DNA of 64,000 nt from Futiania mangrovi (GTDB lineage Bacteria > Pseudomonadota > Alphaproteobacteria > Futianiales > Futianiaceae). The translations under genes were made by a program, and so were the position numbers. The stretch lies in the NCBI RefSeq assembly GCF_024158125.1, contig NZ_JAMZFT010000002.1:310001-374000 (forward strand), read 5' to 3'. Below are positions 24,663-28,028 of this stretch, piece by piece (the first letter of the stretch is position 1; each line of letters opens with the position of its first letter). Under the pieces are notes generated by a model. It had not been told where the DNA came from. It saw only the letters and a program-made list of their open reading frames with translations, and did not search any database.

Positions 24663-25457
24663 CTATCCGGTCCGCCGCAGCACACCGCCGTCGCCGCAGA
24701 ACCGGCAACCCGGATCGGCGGGCAGGCGCAGGGTGCGGAAATTCGCCGACAGCGCATCATAGAGCAGCAACCGGCCCGCCAACGGCTCGCCCAGATCCAG
24801 CAGAACCTTGATGACCTCCACCGCCTGCAGCGTCCCCATGACGCCCGCGACGGCGCCCAGTACGCCTGCCTCGGCGCAATTGAGCACGGCGCCGGGCGGC
24901 GGCTCGTCCGGCACGAGGCAGCGATAGCAGGGCAGCCGCCCGCCCTCCGGTCCCGCCGCATAGGGCATCCAGACCGACAATTGCCCGTCGAACTGGCCGA
25001 TCGCGGCGGAGACGAGCGGCACGCCCGCCCGCGCGCAGGCATCGGCGACCGCGTGCCGGGTCGCGAAATTGTCCGAGCCGTCGGCAACGAGGTCGTAACC
25101 GGCGATCAGGTCCGGCGCGTTCTCCGCCGTGATGCGGGTCGCGTGCGCGACGACGGCCACGTCCGGGTTGACGCGGGCGAGGCTCGCTGCCGCGCTCTCG
25201 GTCTTGGGATGCCCCACGGCGGCGGTGTCGTGGATCACCTGCCGCTGCAGGTTCGACAGCGCTACCGCGTCGTCGTCGACGATGCCCAGCGTGCCGACCC
25301 CCGCCGCCGCGAGATAGAGCAGCAGCGGCGCACCGAGGCCGCCCGCACCGATCACCAGCACGCGCGAGGCGAGGAGGCGCGCCTGCCCTGCCCCGCCCAC
25401 TTCGCGCAGGATGATATGCCGGGCATATCGGTCGAGCTGGTCGTCTGTCAGATTCAT
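24663..25457 (-). CDS. moeB: MoeB/ThiF-family E1-like adenylyltransferase
   Basis: Activates the C-terminal glycine of a ubiquitin-like sulfur carrier (MoaD or ThiS) by adenylation. The nucleotide motif is VLVIGAGGLGAPLLLYLAAAG, here partly quoted. The DxxxxxNLQRQ block appears as DAVALSNLQRQVIH. A zinc site is formed by CYRC and CRFC, and a cysteine in NCAEAGVLG matches the active-site region. ATG 25457 gives 264 aa; there is no rhodanese tail. MoeB and ThiF cannot be separated confidently without partner genes, which are absent nearby. The gene is convergent with the DUF2254 gene. Confidence 0.88.
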   Translation of the reverse strand: MNLTDDQLDRYARHIILREVGGAGQARLLASRVLVIGAGGLGAPLLLYLAAAGVGTLGIVDDDAVALSNLQRQVIHDTAAVGHPKTESAAASLARVNPDVAVVAHATRITAENAPDLIAGYDLVADGSDNFATRHAVADACARAGVPLVSAAIGQFDGQLSVWMPYAAGPEGGRLPCYRCLVPDEPPPGAVLNCAEAGVLGAVAGVMGTLQAVEVIKVLLDLGEPLAGRLLLYDALSANFRTLRLPADPGCRFCGDGGVLRRTG

Positions 25458-25490
25458 GGGACGCGACGCTAGCGCGGCTTTGCCCAAACG

Positions 25491-25545: not shown

Positions 25546-26376
25546 TCAGACGCGGCGGCGCGCCACCGCGAGACCGACGAGGCCGAGGCCCAGGAGCGCC
25601 AGCACGCCCGGCTCCGACACCTGGGAGCCGCCGCTGCTGCCGCCGCCCGTCTGGCAAGCCGGGTCGCTCGGGTTCACGGTGCAGAAGTCGATGATCTCCT
25701 GCAGCTTGCCCTTGGCGAATGTCTCCACGAACAGCTCCACCTGGGTCTGATCGCTCGATCCGAACTGGTTGAGGTCGAAGATGTTGCCACTGTGGTCCTT
25801 GATCAGGTCTTCATAGGACGCGATCGTCCGGCTGCCAGAGAGCACGCCGTTCAGCAGCGCGTTGAACTGGGTCAGAAGCGCATCGATGCCCGCCTCGTTC
25901 ACCGTGGCGCCACCGATGCTGTATCCTCCGTCGCCGTTCGAAGGTTCGTCCGTCAGGATGATGATGTTCTTCACTGCAGCCGACCGATAGCTCAGCGTGT
26001 CGGTCTGACCGTCGAGCTGATTGAGGGCGAACGCGATTGCCGAGTAGCCCGGCTCCGTCCCGCCATTGGTTCGCAGGCCGTTCGCCGCCGTGGCGAAGTC
26101 CGTCGGATTGGTGAAGTCGGTGATGAGCCGCGGCGCAACGCCTCTGTCGCCGTAACCCACCAGCGCATAGCGCGCATCCACGCCACCGCCCGACAGGATC
26201 GACGCAAACAAGCTCATGTTGTTGCGCAGGTTTGCCTGCACGCTGCCCATGCTTCCAGACTCGTCGACGATGAACACGATGTCCGACGAGATAGAAGCCG
26301 CCTGCGCCGGAGCTGCCGCCGCAATGGCGAACGGCAGTGCCAGCATGATGCGCCGAAGCGCCCCCTTGAACGTCAT
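25546..26376 (-). CDS. Secreted VWA-domain protein with PEP-CTERM-like sorting signal
   Basis: A 276-aa exported protein. The signal peptide spans residues 1-26 (basic start, hydrophobic core, APAQA). A von Willebrand A domain follows with a complete MIDAS DESGS at 38-42 and a later ILTDEPS. The C-terminus has a Gly/Ser linker, then SEPGVLALLGLGLVGLAVAR and a final RRRV, the three-part PEP-CTERM pattern (motif, helix, basic end). Such proteins are processed by an exosortase, which is not in this window. One cysteine pair (FCTVNPSDPACQ) precedes the linker. GGAGG is 7 bases before ATG 26376. Codon use is less GC-rich than neighbours. Confidence 0.85.
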   Translation of the reverse strand: MTFKGALRRIMLALPFAIAAAAPAQAASISSDIVFIVDESGSMGSVQANLRNNMSLFASILSGGGVDARYALVGYGDRGVAPRLITDFTNPTDFATAANGLRTNGGTEPGYSAIAFALNQLDGQTDTLSYRSAAVKNIIILTDEPSNGDGGYSIGGATVNEAGIDALLTQFNALLNGVLSGSRTIASYEDLIKDHSGNIFDLNQFGSSDQTQVELFVETFAKGKLQEIIDFCTVNPSDPACQTGGGSSGGSQVSEPGVLALLGLGLVGLAVARRRV

Positions 26377-26440
26377 TTTATGCCTCCAACATGACGGTCC
26401 GCTCATCCATCGGTTGAGCAATGCCCATGCCAAGGCGCCC

Positions 26441-26488
26441 GTTAAGGGTGATTCTCGAAATATATCAACGTTTATAAAGTGTTAAGGG
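26441..26488 (-). promoter_or_regulatory. Repeated CCCTTAAC motif upstream of the VWA gene
   Basis: The octamer GTTAAGGG (CCCTTAAC on the coding strand) occurs at 26441-26448 and 26481-26488, exactly 40 bases apart, about four helical turns. Between them is an AT-rich stretch with a possible -10 (TATATT on the minus strand, 26459-26464). The arrangement suggests operator half-sites, but the regulator is unknown. Confidence 0.4.
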
Positions 26489-26517
26489 CGCACGTTCACT
26501 GGGAACGCACGCCCTTT
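26484..26517. terminator. Terminator hairpin between cysK and the VWA gene
   Basis: AAGGGCG pairs with CGCCCTT, and inner CGTTC with GAACG, around ACTGG. TTTT follows on the plus side and an A/T-rich stretch on the minus side. It lies about 65 bases past the cysK stop and should isolate the VWA gene from the cysK operon. Confidence 0.5.
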
Positions 26518-26581
26518 TGCCAAAGTCTCTGACAGTCTTGTCAAGAGTCCGTGACAATTACACTCCGTCCGATGGAGAGTC

Positions 26582-27538
26582 TTACAACCCCTCGAACAAT
26601 GCAGTCGACAGGTAACGCTCGGCAAAACTCGGGATGATCACCACGATGGTCTTGCCCGCCATGTCGGGCCGGCTGGCCAGTTCCAGCGCCGCCGCGACGT
26701 TCGCGCCCGAGGAGATGCCGCCGGGGATCGCCTCCGTCCGCGCCAGGCGGCGGGCCGTTTCGAAGGCCGTCTCGTTGCCGATGGTGATGACCTCGTCGAT
26801 CAGGCCGCGGTCGACGTTGCCGGGAATGAAGCCCGCGCCGATGCCCTGGATCTTGTGCGGGCCGGGCTGGCGGCCCGACAGCACGGCGGAATCCTCCGGC
26901 TCGACCGCCACGATGCGGACATCCGGCTTGCGCGCCTTCAGCACGCGGGCGACGCCGGTGATCGTCCCGCCCGTGCCGATCCCCGCGACGACGGCGTCGA
27001 CCTTGCCGGCGGTGTCGTTCCAGATCTCTTCCGCGGTCGTCTTCTCGTGGATGGCCGGGTTTGCCGGATTGTCGAACTGCTGCGGCATGATGGCGCCGGG
27101 GATCTCCTCCAGCAGCGCCTTCGCCCGGTCCACCGCCCCGCGCATTCCCTTGTCGGCGGGGGTCAGCTCCAGCTCCGCGCCCAGCAGCGCCAGCATCTTG
27201 CGCCGCTCCATCGACATGGATTCCGGCATGCACAGAATGAGGCGGTAGCCCCGCGCCGCGCAGACGAAGGCAAGCGCGATGCCCGTGTTGCCCGACGTCG
27301 GCTCGACGATGGTGGCGCCGGGTCCGATCTTGCCCGCGGCCTCCAGCGCCTCGATCATGGCGACGCCGATGCGGTCCTTGACGCTCGCCATCGGGTTGAA
27401 GAATTCCAGCTTCGCCAACACTTCCGCCTTGGCGCCCGCCTCCGCGGTGATCCGGCGCAGGCGGACGAGCGGCGTATTGCCGACGGTTTCGGTGATCGAG
27501 TCGTAAACGCGGCCGCGGCCGGCCTTCTCCGTGGTCAT
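26582..27538 (-). CDS. cysK: Cysteine synthase A
   Basis: PLP enzyme that makes cysteine from O-acetylserine and sulfide. The PLP lysine is Lys54 in [11 protein letters not shown]. The substrate loop [13 protein letters not shown] and phosphate-binding [10 protein letters not shown] are intact. The length, 318 aa, is typical. The ATG of MTTEKAGRG has AAGGAAGGG about 10 bases upstream. The gene is last in a minus-strand run and follows a cysteine-free Rrf2 regulator by 43 bases, a context resembling CymR-CysK control in Firmicutes. Confidence 0.95.
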
Positions 27539-27581
27539 GACGGCGTTTCCCTTCCTTGCAGCCCCAACGCGGGGCCCTGTC

Positions 27582-28028
27582 TCAGATCGTGAAGTCGCTG
27601 CGGCGCTGGGCGTCGCTCGGCACGCGGGCGGCTTCCGCACGCGCCACCAGGTCCTCGATGGTGATGGCGTCGAGCCGGGCCATCACCTCGGCCTCGACCT
27701 CGTCCACCAGCGGCTCGATCACGGCACGGGCGAGCGCGGACTCCGACCCGCCGCCGCCCTCCTCGACATCGTCCGCCTGGACGACGCGGACCACCTCACC
27801 GACGGTGATGCGCCGGCGCTCGCGCGCGAGCGTATACCCCCCGCGAGGTCCGCGCACACCCTTGAGGATGCCCGCATGGACCAGTTGCTGCATCACCTGC
27901 TCGAGATAGCGCTGCGGGATCCCCTGGCGCCGCGTGATCTCCTTGGATTGCACCGGCTCGGGCCGGGCATTGTAGGCCACGTCGACCACCGCCTCGATGG
28001 CATGGAGCGTCTTGCGCGACAGGCGCAT
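27582..28028 (-). CDS. Rrf2-family regulator without cysteines
   Basis: A 148-aa winged-helix regulator. The N-terminus [20 protein letters not shown], the recognition region [20 protein letters not shown] and the wing [15 protein letters not shown] identify Rrf2. IscR and NsrR bind an Fe-S cluster through three cysteines; this protein has no cysteine at all. It is therefore more like CymR, which senses cysteine supply through CysK. It starts two bases after the dut stop and precedes cysK. The CymR-like role is inferred from context. Confidence 0.85.

What the first reader, a model, noticed from the sequence alone, without database searches (positions are those of the whole stretch)
25546..26488. 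Lone VWA protein with PEP-CTERM-like tail and paired CCCTTAAC sites
The protein has a signal peptide, intact MIDAS and a SEPGVLALLGLGLVGLAVAR-type end. PEP-CTERM sorting needs an exosortase and usually an exopolysaccharide locus. Two identical octamers 40 bases apart in the upstream gap suggest a dedicated regulator.
Basis: partly seen in the sequence, partly recalled or inferred. Interest (0 to 1): 0.52.

Follow-up and report, generated by a model that had tools for sequence, protein, structure and literature searches.

The report
Exosortase-sorted VWA surface protein, PrsR-controlled

Summary
The protein is as described: 276 aa, signal-peptide-like start, VWA domain with DxSxS and TDE metal-site motifs, and a PEP-CTERM tail over Pfam's cut-off. 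The same genome holds two exosortases, one inside a standard XrtA exopolysaccharide locus, and 12 PEP-CTERM proteins over cut-off. It also holds a 73%-identical second VWA protein, so this one is not "lone". A search of one-per-species genome contigs gave 18 close relatives (53-65% identity) in beta-, gamma- and alphaproteobacteria and one planctomycete. Exosortase is present in 17 of those 18 genomes and PrsR over cut-off in 17 of 18.

The regulator idea is right in spirit but the octamers are the wrong sites. CCCTTAAC pairs occur once in the genome. The octamer is absent from the other 12 PEP-CTERM upstream regions. One copy overlaps a hairpin stem behind cysK, and 161 of 2000 shuffles of the gap give some repeated octamer. 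The likely control elements are a near-consensus sigma-54 promoter (26417-26433) and two PrsR-box-like copies (26518-26556). All 13 PEP-CTERM genes carry sigma-54-like boxes scoring at least 9 of 11, against 10 of 165 other genes. Haft et al. described this arrangement in 2006. Verdict: new member of a known kind, low interest.

The parts
25546..26376 (-). CDS of the VWA-PEP-CTERM protein, 276 aa, ATG start
   Evidence: Shine-Dalgarno-like TTGGAGG at 26383-26389
26299..26376 (-). signal-peptide-like N-terminus, residues 1-26 (basic n-region, hydrophobic core, AQA-A end)
   Evidence: read from the sequence; no signal-peptide predictor was run
25762..26283 (-). VWA domain, residues 32-205
   Evidence: PF00092 1.8e-12; AlphaFold2 model, pLDDT mostly over 90 in this part
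26251..26265 (-). MIDAS motif DESGS, residues 38-42; further MIDAS-type residues E108 and D143
   Evidence: invariant in the 18 rows of A2; the MIDAS assignment is recalled knowledge of VWA domains
25552..25623 (-). PEP-CTERM sorting signal, residues 252-275 (SEP motif, hydrophobic stretch, RRR)
   Evidence: PF07589 26.1 bits and TIGR02595 19.6 bits, both over cut-off
26417..26433 (-). sigma-54 -24/-12 promoter, TTGGCATGGGCATTGCT, GG-N10-GC
   Evidence: 10 of 11 consensus positions; the only score-10 site in the 64-kb window; the consensus itself is recalled
26518..26534 (-). PrsR-box-like motif 1, copy B (TGTCAGAGACTTTGGCA)
   Evidence: 11.9 bits with a matrix trained on relatives; 99% quantile of 165 control segments 7.7
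26539..26556 (-). possible PrsR-box copy A, dyad TGTCA-N8-TGACA, 22 bp from copy B
   Evidence: dyad YGTCA-N7/8-TGACR found at 4 places in about 249 kb scanned, 3 of them before PEP-CTERM genes; not among the high scores of the relatives' matrix
26484..26516 (-). 14-bp perfect hairpin downstream of cysK, probable terminator; overlaps the first octamer
   Evidence: -28.4 kcal/mol, z -3.84
26481..26488 (-). CCCTTAAC copy 1; its first five letters belong to the hairpin stem
26441..26448 (-). CCCTTAAC copy 2, just upstream of the sigma-54 box; no support as a regulatory site
26582..27640 (-). upstream neighbour cysK (cysteine synthase A), ORF as called mechanically
   Evidence: TIGR01139 443.3 bits, cut-off 350.95
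24663..25487 (-). downstream neighbour, MoeB/ThiF-type adenylyltransferase, ORF as called mechanically
   Evidence: NF004281 319.9 bits, cut-off 266

Best explanation
The gene encodes an exosortase substrate: a small extracytoplasmic VWA (integrin-I-like) protein. Its signal peptide sends it through Sec. Its PEP-CTERM tail holds it in the inner membrane until exosortase, most likely XrtA of the C1 exopolysaccharide locus, removes the tail and hands the protein to the cell surface or exopolysaccharide matrix. There its metal-dependent adhesion site would bind a matrix or surface ligand and help cells stick together. Transcription is switched on with the rest of the PEP-CTERM set by PrsK/PrsR acting on a sigma-54 promoter, from PrsR boxes about 85-120 bp upstream of the -24 element. 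Shown here: gene, domains, exosortases, PrsK, PrsR and RpoN genes, promoter and box sequences, and co-occurrence across genomes. Inferred: processing by XrtA, surface location, ligand binding, and activation by PrsR.
For: The tail scores over the Pfam and NCBIfam cut-offs. Two exosortases and 12 PEP-CTERM genes over cut-off lie in the genome. The C1 locus matches TIGR03109 exosortase A, TIGR03007, TIGR03015, TIGR03087, TIGR03108, PrsK TIGR02916 and PrsR TIGR02915, all over cut-off, and TIGR03016. RpoN is present, 425 bits. Sigma-54-like boxes: 10 of 13 PEP-CTERM genes score 10 of 11 and 3 of 13 score 9; of 165 control genes 0 score 10 and 10 score 9. The shared motif upstream of relatives' genes, TGTC(A/G)...TTTACA, has 15.3 bits against 10.3-10.9 in shuffles and matches the published motif 1 ending in TTTACA (PMC1569441, section 7 read). 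Trained on relatives only, its matrix scores the window gene 11.9 and the second copy 15.1, against a control 99% quantile of 7.7. Exosortase is in 17 of 18 genomes with a relative, against 52 of 385 genomes of the window's class. PrsR is over cut-off in 17 of those 18 genomes, missing only in the planctomycete. The AlphaFold2 model resembles integrin beta headpieces, integrin I domains and collagen VI. An RpoN-dependent PEP-CTERM gene involved in floc formation is published (PMC9850573, passages).
Against: No experiment: cleavage, location and ligand are inferred. The motif is SEP rather than PEP. With the matrix from relatives only 4 of 13 PEP-CTERM genes exceed the control 99% quantile for the PrsR box, so the box in this genome is divergent or partly absent. 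The sigma-54-like boxes of two genes (L003, L007) lie over 230 nt from the assumed start, near the published limit. Which exosortase handles this protein cannot be told from sequence. The matching Foldseek folds are generic VWA folds at 9-21% identity, and some top hits are TFIIH subunits rather than adhesins.
Confidence: 0.85

Rival explanations
1. The paired CCCTTAAC octamers are binding sites of a separate dedicated regulator of this gene.
For: The pair is exact, 40 bp apart (about four helical turns), and occurs once in the genome; single copies number 11 genome-wide against 37 for the reversed control pattern.
Against: Up to one mismatch, absent from the 450 nt upstream of the other 12 PEP-CTERM genes; exact copies absent upstream of 17 of 17 relatives' genes. 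One copy overlaps a hairpin stem. 161 of 2000 shuffled gaps hold some repeated octamer.
Confidence: 0.04
2. The tail is a plain membrane anchor or a remnant and is not an exosortase signal.
For: SEP replaces PEP, and the second copy's tail falls below Pfam's cut-off (17 against 20.7 bits).
Against: Both protein cut-offs are passed. The genome has exosortases and many PEP-CTERM proteins. The tail is kept in relatives: 17 of 18 family members match PF07589.
Confidence: 0.05
3. The protein is handled by the second, C4 exosortase and not by XrtA.
For: Two exosortases are present, both over Pfam's cut-off; the second VWA copy lies on the same contig as exosortase 2, though about 168 kb away.
Against: The region upstream of exosortase 2 has a sigma-54-like box almost the same as that of the thioredoxin-fold PEP-CTERM gene about 14 kb away, which hints at that pairing instead. 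XrtA sits with PrsK/PrsR and the EPS genes.
Confidence: 0.1

Closest known systems
PEP-CTERM/EpsH (exosortase) system with PrsK/PrsR/sigma-54 control (Haft et al. 2006, PMC1569441; section 7 read in full, other passages by search)
   Same: PEP-CTERM tail, exosortase in an EPS locus, single gene behind an intergenic gap, sigma-54 box, upstream motif 1 ending in TTTACA in relatives at a spacing (85 nt here) within the published 32-92, PrsK and PrsR tandem near exosortase
   Different: SEP in place of PEP; the box in this genome departs from the TTTACA consensus
PepA, RpoN-dependent PEP-CTERM protein of Aquincola tertiaricarbonis (PMC9850573; passages seen)
   Same: sigma-54-type promoter before a PEP-CTERM gene; role in cell aggregation
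   Different: the window protein scores 32 bits against the PepA model, cut-off 80, so it is not a PepA; no VWA domain is mentioned in the PepA passages seen
VWA/inter-alpha-trypsin proteins with exchangeable GlyGly-CTERM, PEP-CTERM or LPXTG tails (PMC3237569; two passages seen)
   Same: VWA protein with a C-terminal sorting tag, PEP-CTERM in Verrucomicrobium
   Different: by its description that vault/inter-alpha-trypsin family is another VWA group; the window protein does not reach the marine sortase-target model (TIGR03788 19 bits, cut-off 551.65)
Integrin beta-I and alpha-I domains, collagen VI (PDB 3ze0, 6djp, 4ihk and others)
   Same: VWA fold with DxSxS metal site; best fold match E 6.4e-9
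   Different: 14-21% identity, no experimental ligand; fold similarity only

Membership tests
PEP-CTERM proteins (exosortase substrates) | C-terminal motif, hydrophobic stretch and basic end at the extreme C-terminus, over a curated cut-off | tested here: met
   PF07589 26.1 bits (20.7), TIGR02595 19.6 (16)
PEP-CTERM proteins (exosortase substrates) | exosortase encoded in the same genome | tested here: met
   two, both over cut-off; exosortase A by TIGR03109
PEP-CTERM proteins (exosortase substrates) | N-terminal signal peptide | tested here: inconclusive
   typical sequence by eye; no predictor available
PEP-CTERM proteins (exosortase substrates) | cleavage and surface location depend on exosortase | not testable with these tools
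   needs an experiment
PrsR/sigma-54 regulon | GG-N10-GC sigma-54 promoter upstream | tested here: met
   10 of 11 positions; controls 0 of 165 at that score
PrsR/sigma-54 regulon | PrsR motif 1, 32-92 nt before the sigma-54 box | tested here: met
   score 11.9 at 85 nt; control 99% quantile 7.7; a diverged form of the consensus
PrsR/sigma-54 regulon | PrsK, PrsR and RpoN genes in the genome | tested here: met
PrsR/sigma-54 regulon | PrsT in the genome | not tested
   no search was run for TIGR02917
VWA domain with MIDAS | DxSxS, a second-loop Thr, and Asp of the third loop (definition recalled) | tested here: met
   D38, S40, S42, D143 invariant; T107 present here but Ser, Ile or Ala in 4 of 20 rows, while E108 is invariant

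The most novel reading that the evidence does not exclude
This conserved VWA-PEP-CTERM family is a bacterial integrin-like matrix adhesin: an exosortase-released, metal-dependent binder of the cell's own exopolysaccharide, with an integrin-beta-like metal site in which an invariant Glu (E108) takes the place of the usual Thr.
Probability: 0.25. Interest if true: 0.45.

Novelty: new member of a known kind. Interest (0 to 1): 0.2.

Why it matters
It gives a compact, testable example of the PrsK/PrsR/sigma-54 PEP-CTERM regulon in a genome whose order is represented by one genome here. It also delimits a VWA-PEP-CTERM family, 53-65% identical to the window protein across proteobacterial classes, for which no NCBIfam family-level model reaches cut-off. 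The paper searches for PEP-CTERM with von Willebrand or VWA domain found no description of it in the library held.

Tried and rejected
Octamer regulon: rejected after genome-wide pattern searches, upstream scans and shuffles. Lone gene: rejected. Plasmid-borne copies: none at E up to 1e-20 in PLSDB. Family in close kin: genus, family and order searches each held only the window's own genome, so no close footprinting was possible; in the class, 2 of 385 genomes matched, the window's own and one distant match. De novo motif search on own-genome upstream regions alone gave nothing clearly above shuffles (11.3 against 10.5-10.7 bits), so the PrsR box was learned from relatives; of its 15 relatives' sites I dropped one (L050, planctomycete) before building the matrix. 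L039 (cut by its contig end) was left out of the upstream scans, so 17 of 18 relatives were scanned; 13 of 17 score at least 9 for sigma-54, 2 score 8 and 2 (L041, L046) have none. The starts used for L036 and L050 in that scan were a few nt off (ATC, GCT). Control genes for one search excluded proteins with PEP-CTERM-like tails by a string filter, and their number was not printed. Rows L051-L056 (30-43% identity) were not used in the family. Solved structures by sequence profile: no match.

Full report
Observation. On the minus strand, 25546-26376 encodes a 276-residue protein. The ATG at 26376 follows TTGGAGG at 26383-26389; the longer TTG-started ORF begins inside a promoter. Pfam finds VWA at residues 32-205 and PEP-CTERM at 252-275, both over cut-off; TIGR02595 is also over cut-off. 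Neighbours on the same strand are cysK upstream and a MoeB/ThiF-type gene downstream. The two CCCTTAAC copies are real.

Exosortase prediction. Searching the window's own genome (3.39 Mb, 5 contigs) gave two exosortases, 12 PEP-CTERM matches over cut-off and two below it. One of the two is a second VWA protein, 73% identical to the window's (ORF read); the other I read as a chance frame. So the gene is not lone. Exosortase A lies on C1 in an exopolysaccharide locus with chain-length determinant, ATPase, TIGR03087 glycosyltransferase, amidotransferase, PrsK and PrsR, each over its cut-off, a TIGR03016 outer-membrane protein over cut-off and a tyrosine kinase just below cut-off. The second exosortase, on C4, is below the exosortase A cut-off (183.2 against 208) but over the general one.

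Family. A scan of genome contigs found 24 loci, 18 of them close relatives, 53-65% identical, from Marinobacter, Nitrosomonas, Nitrosospira, Nitrosovibrio, Gallionellaceae, Thauera, Dechloromonas, Roseococcus, two further MAGs and one Phycisphaeraceae MAG. In 18 aligned members, counting the window's and leaving out the truncated L039 and the second copy, all match VWA and 17 match PEP-CTERM. The two copies of this genome group together with 96/94 support. Within the window's class only 2 of 385 genomes have a match, one of them its own. Exosortase occurs in 17 of 18 relatives' genomes against 52 of 385 in the class. PrsR over cut-off occurs in 17 of those 18 and in the window's genome. The one genome without PrsR is the planctomycete, as expected from the 2006 report that the motifs are confined to proteobacteria. 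The one without exosortase is a Marinobacter MAG.

Regulation. The gap holds TTGGCATGGGCATTGCT at 26417-26433, 10 of 11 sigma-54 consensus positions and the only such score in the window. Across 13 PEP-CTERM genes of this genome (12 over cut-off plus the second VWA copy), 10 have a score of 10 and 3 a score of 9 within 450 nt. Among 165 other genes none scores 10 and 10 score 9. Upstream of relatives' genes a motif TGTC(A/G)...TTTACA emerges at 15.3 bits, shuffles 10.3-10.9, which fits the published motif 1 (text; its logo was not visible). A matrix from 14 of the 15 relatives' sites finds TGTCAGAGACTTTGGCA at 26518-26534 with 11.9 bits, and a site of 15.1 bits before the second copy; the 99% quantile of controls is 7.7. 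Only 4 of 13 PEP-CTERM genes pass that value, so the box is diverged or partly missing here. A dyad TGTCA-N8-TGACA lies 22 bp further up (26539-26556); this dyad form occurs 4 times in about 249 kb scanned, 3 of them before PEP-CTERM genes. RpoN is encoded.

Octamers. The pair occurs once in the genome and the octamer 11 times. It is missing from the other 12 PEP-CTERM upstream regions at up to one mismatch, and exact copies are missing upstream of all 17 relatives scanned. Copy 1 overlaps a 14-bp hairpin at 26484-26516, probably the cysK terminator (inference). Shuffles of the gap yield a repeated octamer in 161 of 2000 cases. They are best read as coincidence.

Mechanism. AlphaFold2 gives a confident VWA fold (mean pLDDT 85.5). 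The best solved matches include integrin beta headpieces, integrin I domains, collagen VI, mussel byssus PTMP1 and the pilus adhesin SpaC, and also TFIIH subunits. D38, S40, S42, E108 and D143 are invariant in 18 rows; T107 varies in 4 of 20 rows. I infer a surface or matrix adhesion protein released by exosortase. The published RpoN-dependent PEP-CTERM protein PepA is involved in floc formation (PMC9850573, passages), which supports but does not prove that role.

Standing. Every element has a described precedent. The VWA family itself was not found in print in the searches made, one of which led to a paper on another VWA group with exchangeable sorting tails. This is a new member of a known kind.

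Noticed in passing
L019:9151-10989 and L019:11853 (C4), L020:4618-5622: The second exosortase's upstream region has a sigma-54-like box TGGGCACAATTATTGCTT almost the same as TCGGTACAATTATTGCTT before a thioredoxin-fold PEP-CTERM gene about 14 kb away, which suggests a dedicated exosortase-substrate pair.
   Followed up: partly
L013:550-1581 (C1:892489 region): A PEP-CTERM protein with a long run of GGST repeats before its sorting tail.
   Followed up: no
L010, C2:196663 region: A PEP-CTERM protein with a long Ser/Gly-rich repeat stretch and a sigma-54-like box just before a probable GTG start.
   Followed up: partly
L018:632 (C1): A sigma-54-like box (9 of 11) just before the first gene called in the XrtA exopolysaccharide locus, which hints at co-regulation of polymer and PEP-CTERM proteins.
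   Followed up: no
window:26484-26516: The cysK-side hairpin sits between the PrsR boxes and the sigma-54 promoter of the VWA gene, so the region seems to serve both as terminator and as regulatory spacer.
   Followed up: no
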